Shown: positions 10,375 to 20,376 of the stretch, in pieces
Position numbering within the stretch: the first letter of the stretch is position 1
Layout of the letters: every line of letters starts with the position of its first letter
IMG/VR virus record: IMGVR_UViG_3300025108_000471
Span: 1-20,874 of that record
Source of the DNA: a virus
Strand: one strand, 5' to 3'
Length of the DNA stretch: 20,874 nucleotides
Made by a program: the position numbers and the translations under genes
Notes under the pieces: model-generated
Database searches by the model: none
What the model was told of the DNA's origin: nothing
What the model saw: the letters and a program-made list of their open reading frames with translations, nothing else

Positions 10375-10872
10375 ATGAAAAGACTAGAAATAATAATAGC
10401 AACTGCTTTTATAATATTAGGAGTATCGTTTGCATATTTTATGCATGATATAAGAAAAGATAATGAAGAAGCTTTATTTAATGCTGAAATAAGATTAGCT
10501 GATCTAATATCATACTTAGAAGAATGCGAAGAAGCTAACGCATACTATGAATACTTTGACGTAAATCATATAATGCCTGATGTTTATCCGTTTGAGCATG
10601 CATTTGAATCAGCCATATATTTATATGGTGAAGGTTCATTCTTTGAATGGCATGATGAACAGTATGCATTAGAATATGCAGAGCTTGCTACAACCACTTA
10701 TTCATCTAATTGGGTATTAAATTCAGATGATAAAGATGATAACTGTAGAAGTAACATACATGATGAATGTGGTGTTTGTGATGGTCCAGGTGCATATACT
10801 TGGTTTGCTGACACTGATAATGATGGTCTTGGTGATCCAGATAACTCTGTTAATAGTTGTTTCACACCATGA
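10375..10872 (+). CDS. Membrane-anchored protein with calcium-loop Cys-rich tail
   Basis: 165 residues. A signal-anchor helix spans about 5-22, followed by a helical acidic region (about 28-110). The C-terminal 45 residues contain ECGVCDG (131-137) and the Asp-rich loop DTDNDGLGDP (146-155), then a final Cys162. This Cys plus D-x-D-x-D-G pattern is the thrombospondin type 3/EF-hand-like calcium loop common in surface proteins of marine bacteria. Topology would place the tail outside the cytoplasm, where the Cys residues could form disulfides. It starts at ATG 10375 after AAAAAAGGA. A host-derived surface or superinfection-related protein is possible (inference). Its stop overlaps the next ATG (ATGA). 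Confidence 0.68.
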   Translation: MKRLEIIIATAFIILGVSFAYFMHDIRKDNEEALFNAEIRLADLISYLEECEEANAYYEYFDVNHIMPDVYPFEHAFESAIYLYGEGSFFEWHDEQYALEYAELATTTYSSNWVLNSDDKDDNCRSNIHDECGVCDGPGAYTWFADTDNDGLGDPDNSVNSCFTP

Positions 10873-11518: not shown

Positions 11519-11741
11519 AGCTAAACCATACATACTAGGTAATCAAGGATATCCAACTAAATTTAAAAACAAAGTTGTAAAGCATTATCTGACATCACAT
11601 CAACCATATAATGCACAGAAGACAGCTGAATATTTTAGACTTAGTCATATGACTATTCGTAAATGGGCATTAGATTATCAAATCAACCATCCGATCAAAT
11701 TTAAAATACTTAAAAAGATTGGAAGTATGTTACATGCGTAA
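11505..11741 (+). CDS. Small basic helix-turn-helix protein
   Basis: 78 residues from ATG 11505 (MKKHKAKPY), with AAAGGAG 8 bases upstream; the in-frame ATG at 11475 lacks a ribosome site. Residues ~15-58 form a homeodomain/transposase-like helix-turn-helix: helix KFKNKVVKHYLTSH, then NAQKTAEYFRLSHMTIRKWALDYQ, where the last part reads as the recognition helix. It is highly basic and is likely a DNA-binding regulator. It precedes and overlaps by 8 bases the AAA+ ATPase gene, so it may regulate or be co-expressed with the ubiquitin-like module. Confidence 0.65.
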   Translation: MKKHKAKPYILGNQGYPTKFKNKVVKHYLTSHQPYNAQKTAEYFRLSHMTIRKWALDYQINHPIKFKILKKIGSMLHA

Positions 11742-12999
11742 AGATGAAGTCATAGCTATGGAGCTTATTAACAGATATAAGGCAGATGTAAAAGATTCTG
11801 GGCCTGTATTTGTTGAAGCTGATAGTATGTATGGCTATGCATTTTTAAAGAGGCTGGTCAATCATAGTAAAAGGTATCAGACAAAAAGATTTCACTTGCA
11901 AGACATGGAACCTTGTTCTGGTACTAAGATGGCACCTATGATTTTTGGGTTATGTGCACCTAAAAAATATTCTAGAGACAAATCATTAAATTATAATGAT
12001 TCAACTGGAATGTGGAAGCTTAAATTTAACGATGGAAGTATCATATATCGTGCATGCATTATGACTGGAGCAGGTAGCAATAAAAGATTAGAAACTTTCA
12101 TAGCTACTGAAAAAGAAGTATTTTGGAAATGGTTAAAATATGTTAATAGACAAACAAACCGTTATCAAAAACCTAAACCAGGATTCTTTGTTGGACAAAT
12201 GACTCCTAATGGACTACTATATGTAGAACAAAAGAAGCCAGTACAAACTCCTGTAATTCATGAGGCTATTGATACAATGAAAGTTGATATGGAATATTTC
12301 TTTAACAATAATCATATATTTACTCGTTATAATATGCCTGGCACGCGCAAGATAATGTTAGTAGGTCCTCCAGGGACTGGTAAAACATCTATGTGCATTA
12401 AATTTGCCAGAGAATATAAAGATGATAAATCTATTGTTATAGCAAGTGATTTAGGTGCATTAGTTTCACATTTACGACGATGTGCACAACATAAAGTATC
12501 AACAATTGTAATTGTTGAAGATGCTGAAGCCATACTAAATGATACTGGTATGGGTACTTCTTCTCAATTACTGAATTTGTTAGATGGTATAAATCAACCA
12601 ACTAATAAAGCTGGAGCTTATATTATTATGACTACCAATCATCCTAATAGGATTGAAGATAGAATCCTAAAGAGGCCAGGTAGAATTGATAAGATAATTT
12701 CAGTAGGTCCCTTAAAGGATCAACAGGCTGTGGAGTGTGCTAAGTTATATTTTCCTGATGAGTTCAAAGACTGGACAAATCTAGAAAATGTAGTGAATAA
12801 CATGACAGGCGCGCAAATTAAAGAGCTAGCACAAAGTACGATGTGTTATGCTGCGCAAAACAGTCTTAAGTTTGATTTAAAGACTGTAAAACTAGTGAAA
12901 AGTAAGTTAACTGACGATCTAAGTGATGCATATAAATATGCAGAGGATAATACTATCGCTCAAAAAGGCAATAAAGTATCATTTGGATTCAATTCATAA
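11734..12999 (+). CDS. BCS1-type AAA+ ATPase
   Basis: 421 residues from ATG 11734 (GGAAG 8 bases upstream; an in-frame TTG at 11719 is less likely). The N-terminal ~170 residues are an unrecognised domain, followed by a linker helix before the AAA+ core. Walker A is GPPGTGKT (211-218). Walker B is IVIVEDAE (about 258-265), with the Glu-Asp order seen in BCS1-like ATPases rather than Asp-Glu. Sensor 1 is MTTN (about 299-302), and RPGR (314-317) supplies the arginine finger region. This class remodels or unfolds proteins as a ring. It ends 10 bases before the ubiquitin-like gene, in the same transcription direction, suggesting joint function. No protease domain is fused, so any proteolysis would need a partner. 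Confidence 0.85.
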   Translation: MRKDEVIAMELINRYKADVKDSGPVFVEADSMYGYAFLKRLVNHSKRYQTKRFHLQDMEPCSGTKMAPMIFGLCAPKKYSRDKSLNYNDSTGMWKLKFNDGSIIYRACIMTGAGSNKRLETFIATEKEVFWKWLKYVNRQTNRYQKPKPGFFVGQMTPNGLLYVEQKKPVQTPVIHEAIDTMKVDMEYFFNNNHIFTRYNMPGTRKIMLVGPPGTGKTSMCIKFAREYKDDKSIVIASDLGALVSHLRRCAQHKVSTIVIVEDAEAILNDTGMGTSSQLLNLLDGINQPTNKAGAYIIMTTNHPNRIEDRILKRPGRIDKIISVGPLKDQQAVECAKLYFPDEFKDWTNLENVVNNMTGAQIKELAQSTMCYAAQNSLKFDLKTVKLVKSKLTDDLSDAYKYAEDNTIAQKGNKVSFGFNS

Positions 13000-13009
13000 G
13001 GAGGGCATT

Positions 13010-13234
13010 ATGCCTAAGATTAAAATGTTATCAGGTGCAGGTTTTGTAGAACAAGAAGTTGCATCTTCAAGTGTAGGTGAATTAAGAGATGAATTAGATA
13101 TTTCATCTAACGCTGCTGTTTCAGTAAATGGAACTAATACTCGCAATTCAACCGCTATCAATGATGGTGATTTTGTTGCTGCAGTGAGTAATGACAAAAC
13201 AGGTGGACGTATTATTTCAGTCTGGTCTGTATAG
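13010..13234 (+). CDS. Ubiquitin-like beta-grasp protein with internal Gly-Gly
   Basis: 74 residues from ATG 13010, with a very strong TAAGGAGGG. The layout follows ThiS/MoaD-type beta-grasp proteins: strands PKIKML and GFVEQEVA, helix SVGELRDELD, strand AAVSVNGT, then INDGDFVAAV and a Gly-Gly at 65-66. The DGD-to-GG distance is 10 residues, against 9 in E. coli ThiS (from memory). Unlike mature ThiS, MoaD or ubiquitin, eight residues (RIISVWSV) follow the Gly-Gly, so maturation by a protease would be needed to expose it; the JAMM protease 2.7 kb downstream is the obvious candidate. The gene is followed by strong hairpins, and its codon use suggests good expression. An alternative is that GG is incidental and the tail is a final strand. 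Confidence 0.75.
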   Translation: MPKIKMLSGAGFVEQEVASSSVGELRDELDISSNAAVSVNGTNTRNSTAINDGDFVAAVSNDKTGGRIISVWSV

Positions 13235-13245
13235 TCTTTAACCTA

Positions 13246-13274
13246 GAGAGGTAGCTGTCGGATAGTTACCTCTC
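13246..13274 (+). other. Stem-loop after ubiquitin-like gene
   Basis: An 11-pair stem (13246-13256 with 13264-13274, one G-U) has a 7-base loop. It lies 11 bases after the Ubl stop codon. It lacks a T-run and belongs to the same G-rich 5' arm class as other intergenic hairpins in this window; it could protect the 3' end of the Ubl message. Confidence 0.65.
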
Positions 13275-13295
13275 ACAAATTTGTAAAACTCTAAA

Positions 13296-13386
13296 TGTTG
13301 AGGGAGTTACGGCTAAAACCACCAATCGTTAATGTTCTATGATGCCATATGGCAGTAGATAAGCGTGGTCTCTCTCAATATTTTTG
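13296..13386 (+). ncRNA. Structured intergenic RNA candidate with 3' T-run
   Basis: Positions 13296-13306 pair with 13370-13380 (11 pairs, two G-U). Inside, ACCA (13321-13324) can pair with TGGT (13366-13369), CGTT (13327-13330) with AGCG (13362-13365), TCTA (13336-13339) with TAGA (13356-13359), and TGCC (13343-13346) with GGCA (13351-13354) around loop ATAT. The result is one long irregular hairpin, with a 14-base unpaired bulge on the left (13307-13320). A T6 run broken by one A follows, so it could terminate transcription. It is not a tRNA (no T-arm or anticodon arrangement). It may be a small phage RNA, a leader sensor or an elaborate terminator. Confidence 0.5.
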
Positions 13387-13412
13387 TAACTTATTCACAT
13401 ACGAATTATAAG
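13384..13412 (+). promoter_or_regulatory. Sigma70-like promoter for E2-like/JAB/E1 block
   Basis: TTGTAA (13384-13389), a 17-base spacer and TATAAG (13407-13412) match a sigma70-type promoter at 4/6 and 5/6 positions. It overlaps the T-run of the structured RNA and lies 24 bases before the ATG at 13436. It would start a new transcript for the zinc-finger to E1 genes, uncoupling them from the AAA+/Ubl transcript. Confidence 0.5.
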
Positions 13413-13435
13413 ATTTATAAAAAAAAGGAAAAAGA

Positions 13436-13708
13436 ATGAGTAAATTAATTACATGTCCAGAATGTGAAGGTGAAGGTTATTTTATATGGTCATGCTGTGG
13501 AGAGGATATAAAAGATACTATAAATGAAACTGATTTATGCCCTCTATGCAATGAACATTGTGGAGATGAAAAAGAAGATTGTGATATATGTCATGGTGAT
13601 GGAGTAATATCAACAATAACTAAAGAGGTGAATGATGGAATATGCAGACATAGCCACACTCATGGTGACCGTTGTCTTACTTGTGGCGTGGATTTGGTGG
13701 GTGAGTAA
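13436..13708 (+). CDS. Multi-zinc-finger protein with DnaJ-type CxxCxGxG motifs
   Basis: 90 residues from ATG 13436 (AAAGGAAAAAGA upstream). Thirteen Cys are arranged as CPECEGEG (7-14), CC (20-21), CPLC (35-38), CDICHGDG (49-56), C70 and CLTC (80-83). The first and third are DnaJ-type CxxCxGxG zinc motifs that would pair with other Cys pairs to bind at least two zinc ions. There is no J domain. Such small zinc proteins bind unfolded proteins or nucleic acids. In a ubiquitin-like operon a zinc-binding adaptor or E3-like role is conceivable but not shown: the spacing does not match a standard RING. Confidence 0.68.
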   Translation: MSKLITCPECEGEGYFIWSCCGEDIKDTINETDLCPLCNEHCGDEKEDCDICHGDGVISTITKEVNDGICRHSHTHGDRCLTCGVDLVGE

Positions 13709-13809
13709 TGAATGCATGTGAAATGTGTGAAAGCAATGATGCTATCCGAAGAGAAGATAATATCTATCTTTGTGATACATGTAATAATAAATATCCAACA
13801 GGAGAATAA
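13708..13809 (+). CDS. Tiny zinc-ribbon protein
   Basis: 33 residues from ATG 13708, overlapping the upstream stop (TAATG). It has exactly two Cys pairs, CEMC near residue 4 and CDTC near residue 22, separated by a short hairpin-like stretch with aromatic and hydrophobic residues (NIYLCDTC). This is a minimal four-Cys zinc ribbon. Its very short length but coherent motif and overlapping start support a real gene. Function unknown; nucleic-acid or protein binding is typical. Confidence 0.62.
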   Translation: MNACEMCESNDAIRREDNIYLCDTCNNKYPTGE

Positions 13810-13812
13810 ATA

Positions 13813-14100
13813 ATGTATTATAATACAACTGGTTTATATGCAGATGATTTAAGAATGGCAAAAGCAAAAACTATGAAACAAGATGATGTAATTTTAGAAA
13901 TATTTGAATATTATCCTGAATGGTCTTATACACCAGGACAAATAATGAATATAGCTTCCAATAATTTTGGAAAAAGATATCCTATTACTAGTATAAGACG
14001 AAGTATTCATACTTTAACTAAAGCAGGTAAGTTACGTAAAACCAGTGAGTTACGTAATTGTATTTATGGTAAAAAAGCTCATTGTTGGGAATTGCAATGA
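13813..14100 (+). CDS. Winged-helix DNA-binding-like protein
   Basis: 95 residues from ATG 13813, with AGGAG 8-9 bases upstream. Residues ~22-92 read as a winged helix: helix DDVILEIFEYYPE, turn YTPGQIMNIASN, recognition-like helix TSIRRSIHTLTKAG, then the wing KLRKTSELRNCIYGKKAHCWEL. This resembles the short wHTH proteins found in many phages, which may be regulators or DNA modulators. The downstream gene overlaps its end as ATGA. Confidence 0.62.
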   Translation: MYYNTTGLYADDLRMAKAKTMKQDDVILEIFEYYPEWSYTPGQIMNIASNNFGKRYPITSIRRSIHTLTKAGKLRKTSELRNCIYGKKAHCWELQ

Positions 14101-14303
14101 GTTCTGTAGGGCGACATTACAAGCAACAAGACACTATTTCAAACAAATTATTTAAATGTAATAAATGTAATTTTGTTTGGACACAAATATATGAAATGGG
14201 AAGAACAAAACTTGTAGAATATTATAGAGATTTTCCCACTTATCAATTAACACGAAAAACATGTAAGGAATGCTTAAATGAATCGAATAGAAATAAAAAA
14301 TAA
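14097..14303 (+). CDS. Zinc-ribbon protein
   Basis: 68 residues from ATG 14097 (ATGA overlap with the upstream stop); an in-frame TTG at 14082 is less likely. Cys pairs CNKC (21-24) and CKEC (56-59) flank a strand-rich stretch (FVWTQIYEMG, then a basic helix-like region), a classic zinc ribbon of about 40 residues. The remainder is basic (N-terminus RHYKQQ, C-terminus NRNKK), which suits nucleic-acid binding. It overlaps the next gene by 26 bases. One of three consecutive small zinc or winged-helix genes placed between the Ubl and the JAB/E1 genes. Confidence 0.65.
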   Translation: MSSVGRHYKQQDTISNKLFKCNKCNFVWTQIYEMGRTKLVEYYRDFPTYQLTRKTCKECLNESNRNKK

Positions 14304-15876
14304 TATACAAAATTGGAATGGAATCAAGGAACTACAAGATCAAATAATTTTAGGCCCTCAAGCTGATATATTATCAAGCTTGGCTCGTATTAATACTCGA
14401 TATAAAAGCAACTTTGGTATTACTAAAACTTTTAGATGGTCTCCTGGTTTTACTAAAGAAAGAAATAGAGTAGTATTGGAAATGTTGGGATTAAATAAAA
14501 AAGGTAAAACTACTACTTATTCTAATCGTATAGACAATAGCCAATGGTACAGAACTCATTTATTTAACAATTTAATAGCTGCTGAAAATTCTTTAAGTAA
14601 TTTAAGGAATAATAATATACTTTTTCAAGATAATACTGATATTGTAAATGATATAATAACTTTTATTCGCAATAAAATTGAACAAGAATTGTTAGTTGTT
14701 AATCAAGCATTCAGTCATAAATGTTCATTATCTACTTATATTACTGATAGTACGCCTGATGGAGAGTATTCTTCTGCAATAGCAATAGAATGGTCTATGA
14801 AACCATATAATATTCAATATTATCCTTCAGTTTATGCAAAAGAAGCTATTGATATTCCTGCAAATAAAACAATGATTGTAGGATTTATTCCAATGGTACC
14901 TTTATTAACTCATTTGGGTAAATATTTAGCTGATAATCAAGATATTGATCAAGATGTAGCATTGGAAAATGGATTGTTATCTTTTAATCAGATGAAAATA
15001 AAAGGAATTTATGATAATCAGTATAAATTAAAACACCCTTATATTTGTCCTCGTTGGGAAACTAGCGGACGAGAAGAATATATTAATCCAAATACTGAAA
15101 CAACACATATGCTACATAATACATGTACTGGAACTTATGATAATTTAGGACGATTAATTACTCAATTTGACTTAGTTTCTGCAACAAATATTATCATACA
15201 ATGGTTGTCAAGATTTATTGAAGGAAAGACTAATCCTCTGAATAATATGAAATATACTTTTGCAGGAAAACCTGCAGGATTAGAAAACACTTCATTATTA
15301 TCTGATCGATCAGAATTTAGATGTTTTAACCTCAAGGTAAAAACTGACTATTGCAAATCAATAGATTGTACGTTAAAAGATACATGTCTTAGAAATGAAC
15401 TTGCAAATGATTCAACAACAGCAAATATAGATGAAGATAAATTACATTTATTTTGTACTTCATTTTTTCAATATTATTTTAGAAATGATAATCATGCTGA
15501 ACGTTTAATACTTGATTTACTTTCAGATAATGAGACAATTCAAACATTAGCATCAGCTATGTATGAAACAATGTCTTATCATGGATCAATATGTGATTTA
15601 ATATATTCACTCATGCAACATGCATATGATTGGGATGATTATGAGGTTCATGTAGAATATTTTAAAGTATGGCATCATGATACATGCAAATCATATTATT
15701 CTTTAGAGGAATATTATGAACAATATGATTTATTTCTGAATACGCCTATGCAATCAGATCCTGAATCTGAAGATTGTTTAAAAGAAGATACTAGAGAAGC
15801 TGATATGATGATCTGGTTAAATTCTAATAATATATCATTAGAAAATGTTAATCAAACATTAAATGAAGTTTTTTAA
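14278..15876 (+). CDS. Large unknown protein, E2-like candidate in Ubl operon
   Basis: 532 residues from ATG 14278 (TAAGGA upstream). Residues ~125-145 form a helix, followed by strand-like segments (150-205 and 236-255) and then KHPYI (252-256) and NTCTG with Cys283, followed by a long helix (298-316). This order (helix, strands, His-Pro, Cys-x-Gly, helices) is that of ubiquitin-conjugating E2 folds, with a longer His-Pro to Cys gap than usual (30 residues versus 8-10). A second cysteine cluster, C349, C359, C364, C370, could hold zinc or Fe-S. The rest (about 380-532) is acidic and helical. Position directly before JAB and E1 genes matches the E2 place in PRTRC-type operons, as I recall. 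The function is not established by motif alone. Confidence 0.42.
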   Translation: MNRIEIKNNIQNWNGIKELQDQIILGPQADILSSLARINTRYKSNFGITKTFRWSPGFTKERNRVVLEMLGLNKKGKTTTYSNRIDNSQWYRTHLFNNLIAAENSLSNLRNNNILFQDNTDIVNDIITFIRNKIEQELLVVNQAFSHKCSLSTYITDSTPDGEYSSAIAIEWSMKPYNIQYYPSVYAKEAIDIPANKTMIVGFIPMVPLLTHLGKYLADNQDIDQDVALENGLLSFNQMKIKGIYDNQYKLKHPYICPRWETSGREEYINPNTETTHMLHNTCTGTYDNLGRLITQFDLVSATNIIIQWLSRFIEGKTNPLNNMKYTFAGKPAGLENTSLLSDRSEFRCFNLKVKTDYCKSIDCTLKDTCLRNELANDSTTANIDEDKLHLFCTSFFQYYFRNDNHAERLILDLLSDNETIQTLASAMYETMSYHGSICDLIYSLMQHAYDWDDYEVHVEYFKVWHHDTCKSYYSLEEYYEQYDLFLNTPMQSDPESEDCLKEDTREADMMIWLNSNNISLENVNQTLNEVF

Positions 15877-15898
15877 TTAATAAAAAAGGAGAAAAAAA

Positions 15899-16738
15899 AT
15901 GTTTTACATTCACAATAAAACATGGAAAAAAGTAATACAATATGCTGAGTCTGCACATACTCAGTTTAAATCTGAAATCAGTGGTATGCTTATAGCCACA
16001 TTGGATGATGAAGGAGATTGGGAGGTTCATTCTCCCGTTATTCTTAAACAAAAAGTAAGTGCAGGTAATACTGTTTTAAATAAAGAAGAATTAGCTAAAT
16101 ATTATGCTAAAACAGGGAAGAAGTATAAAGGAGCAGTTAAATTTGTATGGTGGCATAGTCATCATACTATGTCTGCTTTCTGGTCAGGTACTGATCATGA
16201 AGCTATTAAAGAGTATGCAGATGGTGATTGGTCTTTAGCATTAGTAGTTAACTTAAAAGAAGAATATAAGTTTAGAGTATCTTATTGGAATCCAATAGAA
16301 TCTCATGAAGATATTGATTTATTATTTATAGATAATGACAATAAACCAACTAAAATTATTAATGATGAAGTGAAAAACCTATGTAATCAAAAGGTTGTTC
16401 ATAATAAAACATACAAAAGAAATTTTCAAAATGGTATTCGAAATTCTTATAATGATTATTATCCTCACGAAAATGATGGGCAATATGAAATATGGGAAGG
16501 ATCAGACTCTATTTTGATTAAAACTTTAGACTTTATTGACAATATTAATGGTAAATATTTCATAGGAACTATTAATTATGAAGAATGGAAGGAACAAGCT
16601 GTTAGTTGGAATACAAAAGATCTTGCAAAACAAGATTTTTATATTGAAATTTGTACTGAATCAGTGCTTGACGATAAATGCATAACAGATGTAAATTCTT
16701 CATTTATAAAAAGATCAATGATTGGAAGCTTAGTATGA
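15899..16738 (+). CDS. JAB/JAMM metalloprotease (deubiquitinase-like)
   Basis: 279 residues from ATG 15899 with AAAAAAGGAG upstream. The JAMM zinc-protease signature is complete: Glu26 in SEISGML, then His86 and His88 in WWHSHH, Ser96 and Asp99 in SGTD, i.e. H-x-H-x7-S-x2-D. JAMM proteins cut isopeptide or peptide bonds after ubiquitin-like Gly-Gly; in prokaryotic systems they both mature precursors and remove tags. The MPN core spans about 10-135. Residues 140-279 are a C-terminal extension without recognised motif and may dock the E1 or substrate. Its stop overlaps the E1 start (ATGA), so the two are made together. Cytoplasmic, no signal peptide. Confidence 0.9.
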   Translation: MFYIHNKTWKKVIQYAESAHTQFKSEISGMLIATLDDEGDWEVHSPVILKQKVSAGNTVLNKEELAKYYAKTGKKYKGAVKFVWWHSHHTMSAFWSGTDHEAIKEYADGDWSLALVVNLKEEYKFRVSYWNPIESHEDIDLLFIDNDNKPTKIINDEVKNLCNQKVVHNKTYKRNFQNGIRNSYNDYYPHENDGQYEIWEGSDSILIKTLDFIDNINGKYFIGTINYEEWKEQAVSWNTKDLAKQDFYIEICTESVLDDKCITDVNSSFIKRSMIGSLV

Positions 16739-17388
16739 TTAATGAAAGATCAGAAGGAATAGTTAATAATCTTCAAAATTATACTTTTCATATTTTAGGC
16801 TGTGGAGCTATTGGTAGCTCTGCAGCTGTGCAATTAACACGTATGGGAGCAAAGAATTTGTGTCTGTATGACATGGATATAGTAGAGCAAGCTAATATAG
16901 GAGTATCTCAATATGAGATATCTGATATTGGAAGTAATAAAGTTGATGCTTTAAGTAAAATATTAAAAGGTATTGAGTCAAATACCAATATTTATACTTA
17001 TCATGAACCATTTAGTGAATGGTATTACCAAGATATGAAAGATATAGTGATATTAGGATTTGATAATATGGATGCACGTTTATTAGCTATGGAAATAATT
17101 GAACATCATCCAAAAAAGCCTCTATTCTTAATCGATGGAAGAATGGGTGCAGAACATTACCAACAATATACACTACCTAAACCTACATTAGCTAAATATA
17201 AGAAGATCTGGTACGCTGAAGGAAGCCCTGAACCATGTAATGCAAAAGCTACTAGTTATTGCAGTAATATGGCTGGATCCTTTATATCCAATACAGTTAG
17301 AAAGCTTACTACTAAACAACCTTACAATAAGGTGTTAAATTTTAACTTTCCAACTTTAATCTTGGAAAAGAGTACTATGTATTCGTAA
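16735..17388 (+). CDS. ThiF/E1-like adenylating enzyme
   Basis: 217 residues from ATG 16735 (ATGA overlap with JAB; an in-frame ATG at 16678 inside the JAB gene is unlikely). The Rossmann nucleotide site is HILGCGAIGSS (19-29), then Asp46 and Asp48 in YDMDIVEQ, Asn54, Lys69 in GSNKVDAL and Asp110 with Arg114 in GFDNMDARLLA: the E1/ThiF adenylation motifs that activate the C-terminal Gly of a ubiquitin-like protein with ATP. Candidate thiol Cys are C168 and C176. Unlike MoeB or ThiF it lacks the paired CxxC zinc motifs and has GVSQ where NLxRQ is usual, with no arginine there. It is short for an E1. Its partner is most likely the 74-residue Ubl upstream. Confidence 0.85.
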   Translation: MINERSEGIVNNLQNYTFHILGCGAIGSSAAVQLTRMGAKNLCLYDMDIVEQANIGVSQYEISDIGSNKVDALSKILKGIESNTNIYTYHEPFSEWYYQDMKDIVILGFDNMDARLLAMEIIEHHPKKPLFLIDGRMGAEHYQQYTLPKPTLAKYKKIWYAEGSPEPCNAKATSYCSNMAGSFISNTVRKLTTKQPYNKVLNFNFPTLILEKSTMYS

Positions 17389-17498: not shown

Positions 17499-17999
17499 GT
17501 GGATCAAATACCCACAATAGAAAATCAACCTCAGCAGAAACTAAATCGTCGTCAAGGTGAATGGAAATCTGAAGAGATTGATCAATTAGCAACCGCTCTA
17601 AGCTTAGCTCAAAGTGAGTTAGAAGGAGCAAAAGCATCATCAACCAATCCTTTTTTCAACAGTAAATATGCAGACTTAAACGCAGTAATGGAAGCTAGCC
17701 TTCCTTCTTTAAGTAAAAATGGCTTATCTGTTGTACAAGGAACTAGATTTTGTGATATAACTAATGGCTTTTATGTATCAACTACATTAATGCATAAATC
17801 AGGTCAATGGATAAAATCAGAAACTCGAATGCCAATAGGTGGGAAAAAGGATGCTCATGCAATTGGAGCAGCAATAACATATGGTAGAAGATATGGTATG
17901 GCTGCAATGGTAGGCATAGCACAAGCAGATGATGACGGTAATAGTGCAACCGACAAAGCACCAAGACAATCAAACTATAAACAAGGAGTGCAAGAATGA
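17499..17999 (+). CDS. erf: ERF-family single-strand annealing protein
   Basis: 166 residues from GTG 17499, with AAGGAGAG about 8 bases upstream; no in-frame ATG lies between the upstream stop and the conserved region. Residues ~25-145 match the ERF recombinase layout: a helix with LATALSLAQ, then FFNSKYADLNAVMEASLPSL, GLSVVQG, strands to about 105 and GAAITYGRRYGMAAMVGI (128-145), followed by DDDGN. ERF proteins promote annealing of complementary single strands and circularisation or recombination of phage DNA. The last ~20 residues are a polar tail. It overlaps the SSB-like gene by ATGA, which suits a joint role on single-stranded DNA. Confidence 0.85.
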   Translation: MDQIPTIENQPQQKLNRRQGEWKSEEIDQLATALSLAQSELEGAKASSTNPFFNSKYADLNAVMEASLPSLSKNGLSVVQGTRFCDITNGFYVSTTLMHKSGQWIKSETRMPIGGKKDAHAIGAAITYGRRYGMAAMVGIAQADDDGNSATDKAPRQSNYKQGVQE

Positions 18000-18520
18000 A
18001 AACTTTCACAGTAAGAAAAGGTAATACTACAAATTATAATCCAGGATGGCATACTAATACTATTTCCAAAGCTACATATGGGGAGTGGAATAATAGTAAA
18101 TATCTTGATGTATTTTTTGAAGGATATAAAGATAATTTTAAAATGCGTGTTTATGAAAAAACAAATGCAGAAGGAGAAGAATTTGCTATATCTAATGTCT
18201 TTAGATTTGCCAATGCAGGGATAGCAGATGCATTAGAAGGTGGAAAAGATATTGTAGTTAAATTTGATGATTCAGAGGCACAATTAACAGGTAAAACTTT
18301 AAATATTTATTATTATAAAGATGCAAAAGGTTATACTAATTGTTTAAATCAAGCAGCACCTACAGTATTTAAAAATATTGTTGATGATTTTTCAGAAGAT
18401 AGTGTAATGTATTTTAAAACAAAAGCAGAGAAATATTTTAATACTTATTTAGCACCTAAAATTGCTGAAAAAACTACAGAAACAACATCAACTGAAGAAA
18501 CTAGTGATGTACCATTTTAA
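17996..18520 (+). CDS. SSB-like single-stranded DNA-binding protein
   Basis: 174 residues. The C-terminus is acidic and ends TEETSDVPF; the last four residues match the SSB C-terminal tip (DIPF in E. coli SSB) that recruits partner proteins. The body has alternating strands with aromatic residues (TFTVRKGNT, YLDVFFEGY, NFKMRVYEK, EFAISNVFRFA, LNIYYYKDAKGY) compatible with an OB fold. I do not see a known SSB consensus in the core, so the call rests on the tail, the strands and the neighbours: ERF upstream (ATGA overlap) and primase-helicase downstream. Confidence 0.65.
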   Translation: MKTFTVRKGNTTNYNPGWHTNTISKATYGEWNNSKYLDVFFEGYKDNFKMRVYEKTNAEGEEFAISNVFRFANAGIADALEGGKDIVVKFDDSEAQLTGKTLNIYYYKDAKGYTNCLNQAAPTVFKNIVDDFSEDSVMYFKTKAEKYFNTYLAPKIAEKTTETTSTEETSDVPF

Positions 18521-18585: not shown

Positions 18586-20376
18586 ATGATAAAAGAATAT
18601 GCATTCTCATTATCAAACAGACATTACTTTCAAGATGTAACAGAAATGGGTAATTGGATTGGGTTGGAAAATGATACTTTTATGTCTTTATATGATTATG
18701 ATGACTATATAGTAGATTATTTTGCAAAGAAAAATACTCTTTCTGGGTTTGATGGATTAATTTATATCCCTGATGAGTTCATTCTTGATGTAGATGGTGC
18801 AAATTATAAAATTGGACGAGATAAATCAATTGGATTAAGCTTGCTATTAGAAGATTTAAGCATTCCTTTTCATTTATATTTCTCTGGTACAGGATTTCAC
18901 TTTCACATCCCTAGCCAAGCATTTAGATGGAAGCCTGCTAAAGATTTACATATAAAAGTAAAAGAAGCATTACATCGTGCAGGTATATTTGAATATGCTG
19001 ATCCATCTGTTACAGATAAAACTAGACTTATTAGAGTACCAAATACTCGTAATAGTAAATCTAATTTATATAAAGTAGCAATACAATATGAATGGTTGCA
19101 TGATGTAGATGGTGAAGCAAAAATACTAGCTCATGCTAAAAATCCTAAAAATCTTCCTAAAGTAGAAATGGAATGTGAACCAGTATTTGATGCACTATCT
19201 GCTCAAAAAAATGAGGATGATAAAGACACCCCTACATTTATATCTCAAGGCAGAAATCCAGATCCAGTAAACTTCCCATGCATTAGTCATATGTTACAAG
19301 ATGGTAGTATTGGAAGCAGACATATGGTAGCTTTAAGATTAGCTGCATGGTTTAGATGGAGATATCCTGAGAATATTGTAAGATTAATTCTAGAGAATTG
19401 GAGGCAGTCAGTTGATAAACAAGATAGTAGATTTACTGAAAAAGAGCTTGATAGTATTGTTAATAATTGTTATGATGGGCATGGGGGTAACGGCTATCGT
19501 TATGGTTGTACTGATCCTATCATGGATAATTATTGTAAACAAACTTGCAAACTATATAAATCAAAAAAAAGCCAATCAGTTATGGATGCATCGTCCATGG
19601 AGAAAGCTTTAATAGACTGGTTACGATCAGATAGTGAACCTATTAATTTAGGAGGATTATATCCTGGTGAAAATTTTCCAATTTACCCTGGTGAAGTAGT
19701 AATAATACAAGCACCACCTAAAAGTATGAAAACTATGTTATTACAAAATTGGATGGTTGGATTTAAAAGACCTACTTATTTCATGGAAATGGAAATGAGT
19801 CCAAGACAAATATGGTCTAGATTTGTAATGATGGAAATGAAATGGTCAGAAAGTGAATTAACTAAACATTATCAACAGATGCAAAATGGTATGGATAAAA
19901 AGTTTGAATGGTTAACAGTAGATTATTCAGCTCCATACGCTAATGAATTGGAAAAGCGAATACAAATGCTACCAATTAAACCAGAGATAGTTGTAGTAGA
20001 CCATATGGGATTGTTTAAATCTAAACAACGCGATTCTAATATGAAAATAGAAGAAGTATCTCAAGCGTTAATGGAATTAGCAGTAAAGAATAATATAATA
20101 GTATTTACAGTAAGTGAAATTACTAAACAAGCTTTTCATGAAGGTATGAATTTAGCTTCAAGTAAAGGCTCATTTAGAACAGCATATAATACTAATAAAT
20201 TATTATCTGTTACACCATTAAAATCTATGTCAACTGGGTTAATAGAAGAACTACATATCAAATGTGAGGCTAATAGAGAAAGAGAAAATATTGATGTTAG
20301 ATTAAAAGTAGATAATGCTAATATTTACAAAGAAACTCAAGAAGAATTACCTCCATTAAATGAAGTATTATTATAA
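18586..20376 (+). CDS. AEP primase-RecA-like helicase fusion
   Basis: 596 residues from ATG 18586 (AAGGAG upstream). The N-terminal part is an archaeo-eukaryotic-type primase: the DVD motif at 68-70 (metal-binding), FSGTGFHFHIP at 99-109, and LIRVPNTRNSKS (148-159) as the nucleotide-binding basic motif. Residues ~228-325 form a PriCT-like helical segment with C232, C308, C317 and C321, a likely zinc or Fe-S site. The C-terminal RecA/DnaB-like domain has Walker A APPKSMKT (376-383), where Met replaces the usual Gly before Lys-Thr, and Walker B EIVVVDHMG (467-475). This is a self-contained replicative primase-helicase. It sits in an operon with SSB-like and ERF genes. Confidence 0.85.
   Translation: MIKEYAFSLSNRHYFQDVTEMGNWIGLENDTFMSLYDYDDYIVDYFAKKNTLSGFDGLIYIPDEFILDVDGANYKIGRDKSIGLSLLLEDLSIPFHLYFSGTGFHFHIPSQAFRWKPAKDLHIKVKEALHRAGIFEYADPSVTDKTRLIRVPNTRNSKSNLYKVAIQYEWLHDVDGEAKILAHAKNPKNLPKVEMECEPVFDALSAQKNEDDKDTPTFISQGRNPDPVNFPCISHMLQDGSIGSRHMVALRLAAWFRWRYPENIVRLILENWRQSVDKQDSRFTEKELDSIVNNCYDGHGGNGYRYGCTDPIMDNYCKQTCKLYKSKKSQSVMDASSMEKALIDWLRSDSEPINLGGLYPGENFPIYPGEVVIIQAPPKSMKTMLLQNWMVGFKRPTYFMEMEMSPRQIWSRFVMMEMKWSESELTKHYQQMQNGMDKKFEWLTVDYSAPYANELEKRIQMLPIKPEIVVVDHMGLFKSKQRDSNMKIEEVSQALMELAVKNNIIVFTVSEITKQAFHEGMNLASSKGSFRTAYNTNKLLSVTPLKSMSTGLIEELHIKCEANRERENIDVRLKVDNANIYKETQEELPPLNEVLL

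What the first reader, a model, noticed from the sequence alone, without database searches (positions are those of the whole stretch)
11734..17388. A phage-borne ubiquitin-like conjugation and deconjugation system
One rightward region holds a beta-grasp Ubl (13010), a JAMM protease with the full E...HSH-x7-S-x2-D motif (15899), a ThiF/E1-like enzyme (16735), an E2-like candidate (14278) and an adjacent BCS1-type AAA+ ATPase (11734). JAMM and E1 are translationally coupled (ATGA). The order Ubl...E2-like-JAB-E1 parallels, from memory, the plasmid PRTRC system (proteins C, F, B, A, ThiF) and the theme of bacterial Bil operons. Those are plasmid or host systems; a copy between early genes and replication genes of a lytic-type phage suggests the phage tags proteins itself, either host factors, its own virion or replication proteins, or as an anti-defence measure.
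Basis: partly seen in the sequence, partly recalled or inferred. Interest (0 to 1): 0.93.

Follow-up and report, generated by a model that had tools for sequence, protein, structure and literature searches.

The report
Ubiquitin-like tagging kit in phages
This phage, with over a hundred uncultured relatives, carries a four-gene set that looks like a complete ubiquitin-style system for sticking a small protein tag onto other proteins and removing it again; such sets were known from plasmids and bacterial defence, but not, as far as I could find, as core phage genes.

Summary
The observation largely holds. In an uncultured tailed-phage fragment, genes for a ThiS-type Ubl (13010-13234), a 532-aa protein (14278-15876), a JAMM protease (15899-16738) and a ThiF/E1 (16735-17388) lie in that order before ERF, SSB-like and primase-helicase genes. 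In 64 of 64 distinct related IMG/VR loci with enough upstream sequence all four are present. Ubl Gly-Gly (76/76), the JAMM motif, the E1 ATP-site residues and one candidate catalytic Cys of the E1, and Cys283 of the 532-aa protein (88/88) are invariant. Homologous E1 and JAB genes sit in the same order in crAss-like and Flavobacterium phages, annotated 'thiamine biosynthesis protein'.

The E2 role of the 532-aa protein is inferred: it has an HP[YF]I...C motif, its best profile matches to UBC and to the crAss gene are in register on that Cys, and its position equals PRTRC protein B; but it has no Pfam/NCBIfam match and no E2 fold hit in the PDB. The AAA+ gene is not part of the module.

Best reading: a phage-encoded Ubl conjugation/deconjugation system, PRTRC/Iyer-6d-like but below every tested PRTRC model. 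The target is unknown; linkage to replication/recombination genes in three phage lineages suggests that machinery. No biochemistry exists.

The parts
13010..13234 (+). Ubl modifier, 74 aa, beta-grasp; invariant G65-G66 followed by an 8-aa tail RIISVWSV
   Evidence: PF02597 above cut-off; AF2 model and Foldseek to ThiS/MoaD/SAMP1; GG in 76/76 relatives, 30 of which end exactly at GG; Shine-Dalgarno AAGGAGGG at 12998-13005
14278..15876 (+). Candidate E2 (532 aa): invariant Cys283 after HPYI (253-256), W309, P320, then a C349-C359-C364-C370 cluster; conserved N-terminal GPQ...TKxFRWxPG
   Evidence: Conservation in 88 relatives; in-register best matches to UBC HPN..C (P 0.035) and crAss gp78 family (P 0.0013); present in 72/72 eligible loci; PDB fold search negative
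15899..16738 (+). JAMM/MPN+ metalloprotease (predicted Ubl processing and deconjugation)
   Evidence: PF14464; Rpn11 profile match; E26, H86-S87-H88, S96, D99 invariant; homologous to crAss gp77 family, 1.9e-9
16735..17388 (+). E1/ThiF adenylyltransferase, 217 aa, no rhodanese and no CxxC zinc site; candidate catalytic C168
   Evidence: PF00899 3.8e-20; profile hits UBA6/UBA5/MccB/ThiF/Cap2; G22/G24/G27, D46, D48, N54, K69, D110 and C168 invariant; the C168 column is Cys in crAss, FpV4 and PRTRC E1s too
16735..16738 (+). ATGA overlap of the JAMM stop and E1 start
17499..17999 (+). ERF-type ssDNA-annealing protein (constant neighbour, not a Ubl component); in some relatives the gene after E1 is a PF13479 AAA_24 protein instead
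   Evidence: PF04404 4.6e-24; phrog_2324
17996..18520 (+). Conserved 174-aa neighbour, SSB-like position (no Pfam family)
   Evidence: conserved neighbour
18586..20376 (+). Primase-helicase (constant neighbour)
   Evidence: phrog_16345 and phrog_19; tblastn to AEP-type primases of Thermus and Bacillus phages
11734..12999 (+). AAA+ ATPase: adjacent, but NOT part of the conserved module
   Evidence: PF00004 5e-14; in 1 of 107 other distinct loci

Best explanation
A phage-encoded ubiquitin-like conjugation and deconjugation pathway. JAMM trims the Ubl tail to expose Gly-Gly (not needed in relatives whose Ubl already ends at GG). E1 adenylates the Gly-Gly carboxylate and probably captures it as a thioester on C168. 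The Ubl passes to Cys283 of the 532-aa E2-like protein and from there to amine side chains of target proteins; JAMM also removes it. The genes belong to the replication/recombination module, so the likeliest targets are phage or host proteins of DNA replication/recombination during infection. Shown here: the genes, their order, invariant catalytic residues, strict co-conservation, Ubl fold prediction. Inferred: thioester chemistry, the E2 role, conjugation itself, the targets.
For: All four genes in 64/64 eligible distinct loci; 90/90 JAMM and 72/72 P532 where the contig is long enough. GG invariant with free or extended C-terminus, the pattern a JAMM processor would explain. JAMM motif complete, profile nearest to Rpn11, a deubiquitinase. 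E1 ATP-site residues and C168 conserved, C168 also in crAss-like, Flavobacterium-phage and PRTRC E1s. P532: C283 88/88, P254 87/88, W309 87/88, P320 88/88; best UBC alignment places HPY on HPN and C on C; the crAss gp78 family matches with the Cys in register, score 34.4 against 19.3 or less for unrelated phage families and 17.3 or less for 58 column shuffles. Same gene order Ubl-like, E2-candidate, JAB, E1 in crAss001 and FpV4. PADLOC E1-E2 models match the E1 at 1.9e-16. Co-occurrence of E1, JAB, E2-like and Ubl genes without metabolic genes is what Iyer et al. 2006 (PMC1779556) predict for Ubl transfer.
Against: P532 has no significant database match and its AF2 model has no E2-like PDB hit; the UBC match alone (P 0.035) is not significant and the P532-crAss P value is for one comparison chosen by gene position. 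The crAss Ubl-like domain lacks Gly-Gly (KSG[A/G/K/S]), so the chemistry may differ between lineages. No E3, no identified target, no experiment. ThiF-type E1s can also serve sulfur transfer.
Confidence: 0.68

Rival explanations
1. E2-less conjugation: E1 hands the Ubl directly to targets, as in archaeal SAMP, and the 532-aa protein is the dedicated substrate, scaffold or an unrelated enzyme using Cys283.
For: No E2 fold hit in the PDB and no family match; P532 varies from about 400 to 835 aa, unusual for an E2; SAMP1 is among the Ubl fold neighbours.
Against: One invariant Cys after HP[YF]I in register with E2 HPN..C, and position equal to PRTRC_B.
Confidence: 0.15
2. Sulfur carrier system: the Ubl is thiocarboxylated by the E1 and donates sulfur for nucleotide, tRNA or cofactor thiolation; JAMM only matures the Ubl.
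For: Ubl family is ThiS-like; E1's best NCBIfam hit is ThiF PRK08644, below its cut-off.
Against: No rhodanese, cysteine desulfurase or PP-loop thiolase among the Pfam-scanned conserved neighbours; a conserved large Cys protein and a JAMM are not part of the ThiF/MoeB pathways; Iyer 2006 argues the same for JAB-linked E1s.
Confidence: 0.1
3. Counter-defence: the module interferes with host Ubl-based immunity (Bil, CBASS Cap2/Cap3), by JAMM stripping host conjugates or by E1/Ubl acting as decoys.
For: E1 matches CBASS E1-E2 models; Bil and CBASS conjugate phage or self proteins (PMC12948488, PMC10097602).
Against: A decoy needs no complete invariant catalytic set; the module is universal in the sampled relatives and sits with replication genes rather than in a variable anti-defence locus.
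Confidence: 0.12

Closest known systems
PRTRC system (plasmid proteins C, F, B, A, ThiF; I equate it with operon type 6d of Iyer et al. 2006)
   Same: Order Ubl - E2 - JAB - E1; single-domain E1 without rhodanese; shared catalytic-Cys column PSCS/EPCN; E1 profiles match 1.8e-11
   Different: No PRTRC model cut-off reached; no ParB seen; B and F not recognisable; invariant Gly-Gly in the Ubl, where the PRTRC C proteins fetched do not end in Gly-Gly; phage replication context
crAss-like phage gp79-gp76 and Flavobacterium phage FpV4 homologues
   Same: Same order; E1 (4e-32) and JAB (2e-9) clearly homologous; E2-candidate match with Cys in register
   Different: Ubl domain fused to a C-terminal region and without conserved Gly-Gly; E2 candidate about 380-440 aa, no Cys4 cluster seen; annotated 'thiamine biosynthesis protein'
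Bil operon (BilA-D)
   Same: Four-part Ubl/E2/JAB/E1 logic
   Different: Bacterial anti-phage defence; no PADLOC Bil match for the window proteins among the hits shown
Type II CBASS Cap2/Cap3
   Same: E1 domain and JAB relatives
   Different: E2-E1 fusion and cGAS as the conjugated protein (PMC10097602); no CD-NTase here
Lambdoid TAPI/TAPK tail-assembly pair
   Same: Phage Ubl + JAB
   Different: No E1/E2; tail module; the phage case reported in Iyer 2006

Membership tests
PRTRC system | E1 reaches TIGR03736 cut-off (144.75 bits) | tested here: not met
   29.5 bits
PRTRC system | JAB reaches TIGR03735 PRTRC_A cut-off (101.8 bits) | tested here: not met
   15.5 bits
PRTRC system | E2 matches PRTRC_B TIGR03737 | tested here: not met
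   No match in any of 67 P532 members among the families listed; hhalign not significant
PRTRC system | Gene order Ubl - E2 - JAB - E1 | tested here: met
PRTRC system | Associated ParB-family gene | tested here: not met
   None among the right-arm genes that were scanned; the window is a fragment
Ubl conjugation systems (function) | beta-grasp Ubl with C-terminal or processable Gly-Gly | tested here: met
Ubl conjugation systems (function) | E1 with ATP-adenylation residues and candidate catalytic Cys | tested here: met
   (by sequence)
Ubl conjugation systems (function) | E2 fold with catalytic Cys | tested here: inconclusive
   Invariant Cys and motif in register; fold search negative
Ubl conjugation systems (function) | Covalent Ubl-substrate conjugates | not testable with these tools
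   Needs biochemistry
JAMM/MPN+ proteases | E...HxH-x7-S-x2-D | tested here: met
   Invariant
Bil | BilA-D models | tested here: not met
   No Bil hit for the Ubl, P532 or JAMM, and none among the 25 best E1 hits

The most novel reading that the evidence does not exclude
A large group of uncultured phages, together with crAss-like and Flavobacterium phages, modifies proteins of the replisome or recombination machinery with its own ubiquitin-like protein through a divergent E1-E2 relay with a previously unrecognised E2 family, as a core step of infection.
Probability: 0.35. Interest if true: 0.93.

Novelty: new variant of a known kind. Interest (0 to 1): 0.82.

Why it matters
Prokaryotic Ubl conjugation is known from bacterial defence and plasmids. 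A complete, invariant set among the core genes of many phages would show viruses of prokaryotes running their own protein-tagging system, offer an unrecognised E2-like family, and give function to genes labelled 'thiamine biosynthesis protein' in cultured crAss-like and Flavobacterium phages, where the idea can be tested at once.

Tried and rejected
AAA+ as a component: rejected, not co-conserved. P532 as a known family: no Pfam, NCBIfam, PHROG, PADLOC or PDB sequence hit. E2 by Foldseek: no PDB hit; the viral library gave six full-length relatives and one 420-aa protein at probability 0.96 (A0A1B0WLX5), the same length as the FpV4 gene, but its identity could not be confirmed. P532 or crAss gp78 against PRTRC_B/F: not significant. 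Column-shuffle null: 2 of 60 shuffles scored about 132, both 5-8-column end artefacts of hhalign; the rest were at most 17.3. Cellular relatives: one genome scan gave only an ordinary ThiF/MoeB-like protein (L157); the scan is pattern-limited, so absence is not shown. TIGR03737 search over three records rang nowhere, controls included: uninformative.

Full report
What is there. The window is a 20,874-base IMG/VR virus record, linear, probably a fragment. The left arm (minus strand) carries terminase and large structural-type genes; the right arm (plus strand) carries the module, then ERF, an SSB-like gene and a primase-helicase. The closest isolate terminase is only 26% identical (Roseobacter phage CRP-4), so the phage has no close cultured relative and its host is unknown.

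The four components. Ubl: ThiS family above the Pfam cut-off, predicted beta-grasp (E-E-H-E-E, pLDDT 82), structurally nearest to Mth1743, ThiS, MoaD and SAMP1 (best E 1.8e-3, modest because it is 74 residues). In 76 distinct relatives the Gly-Gly is invariant and the nearby Lys63 nearly so; 30 proteins end exactly at Gly-Gly, the others have tails, eight residues in the window and up to 103 in L057. JAMM: all metal and catalytic residues invariant; profile nearest in the PDB to an archaeal Rpn11. E1: invariant ATP-binding residues; a Cys at position 168 shared with crAss-like, Flavobacterium-phage and PRTRC E1s, while C176 is not. It has no rhodanese domain. 532-aa protein: Cys283 and P320 in 88/88, P254 and W309 in 87/88, Cys4 cluster in about 90%.

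More than chance. Relatives were collected with the JAMM and E1 (257 and 218 hits, best 80 kept each). Among 108 distinct E1 loci including the window, of those with enough upstream sequence 90/90 carry the JAMM, 72/72 the 532-aa family and 64/64 all four. Because loci were gathered by JAMM or E1, the independent information is in the Ubl and 532-aa counts. The family definitions came from iterated profiles, which could drift, but the invariant residues argue against that. The AAA+ gene is in one of the other distinct loci only.

Is the 532-aa protein an E2? For: a single invariant Cys after HP[YF]I, like HPN...C of E2s; the best alignment of its profile with three eukaryotic UBCs puts HP on HP and Cys on Cys (P 0.035); its profile matches the crAss gp78 family over 137 columns with the Cys in register (P 0.0013, score 34.4; unrelated phage families at most 19.3); it lies next to the JAMM, as PRTRC_B is upstream of PRTRC_A. 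Against: no family hit, no PDB fold hit for the model (pLDDT 76.5, pTM 0.69), and a length of 400-835 aa. I give about 0.7 that it carries the Ubl as a thioester.

Spread. crAss001 gp79-gp76 and Flavobacterium phage FpV4 have the same order: Ubl-like, E2 candidate, JAB, E1. Twelve IMG/VR loci found with the crAss E2 candidate also carry the Ubl-like and JAB genes, and 10 of them an E1 within the fetched stretch. There the Ubl-like domain is fused to a further region and continues KSG[A/G/K/S], so Gly-Gly is not conserved.

Function. In the window family the gene after E1 is an ssDNA-annealing protein, ERF (PF04404), or an AAA_24 ATPase (PF13479, Sak4-like by my reading), usually followed by SSB-like and primase-helicase genes. 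In crAss001 the neighbours are primase, uracil-DNA glycosylase, resolvase and exonuclease; in FpV4 a toprim protein and uracil-DNA glycosylase. This repeated linkage in three lineages is the basis for proposing replication/recombination targets; it is inference, since phage gene order also reflects timing of expression. No sulfur-transfer enzyme was seen among the scanned neighbours.

Known or new. Iyer et al. 2006 (PMC1779556) described operons with Ubl, JAB, E1 and E2-like genes in bacteria (type 6d) and, for phages, only the tail-assembly TAPI/TAPK pair. CBASS Cap2/Cap3 (PMC10097602) and Bil (PMC12948488) are bacterial defences. Nine searches of the open-access library found no paper on a phage Ubl-E2-JAB-E1 module; subscription papers and preprints are not held, so priority is not established. 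The PRTRC model cut-offs and the Bil models tested are not met, so I file it as a new variant of Ubl conjugation systems, working like PRTRC without being a member.

Noticed in passing
L153:3253-7663 (crAss001 gp79-gp76); L154:2619-6630 (FpV4): Cultured crAss-like and Flavobacterium phages carry a homologous module whose E1 is annotated 'thiamine biosynthesis protein'; probably a misannotation.
   Followed up: partly
L156:695-1898 (uncultured phage cr106_1): The Ubl-like gene is split: an HNH endonuclease gene (975-1490) lies between the Ubl-like part, which ends KSGKF, and the rest of the protein.
   Followed up: no
L057:637-1191 and L009:6001-6438: Ubl carries a further 60-103 residues after Gly-Gly, as if expressed as a fusion to be cut.
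   Followed up: no
window 17499-17999 and equivalents in relatives: The gene after E1 is ERF in some relatives and a PF13479 AAA_24 (Sak4-like) protein in others: apparent exchange of recombinase type at one position.
   Followed up: partly
window 10375-10872: 165-aa ORF with a membrane-anchor-like N-terminus and a C-terminal 'DECGVCDGPGAYTWFADTDNDGLGDPDNS' segment; from memory this resembles calcium-binding TSP3-type repeats of marine bacterial surface proteins, a possible lead on the host.
   Followed up: no
window 13436-14303: Three small genes between Ubl and P532 (two Cys-rich, one matching phrog_9069); patchily conserved in relatives, so probably not core.
   Followed up: partly
L160:6596-8329; L162:7723-10212: PAPS-reductase-family genes lie a few genes from PRTRC ThiF on Shewanella and Vibrio plasmids.
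   Followed up: no
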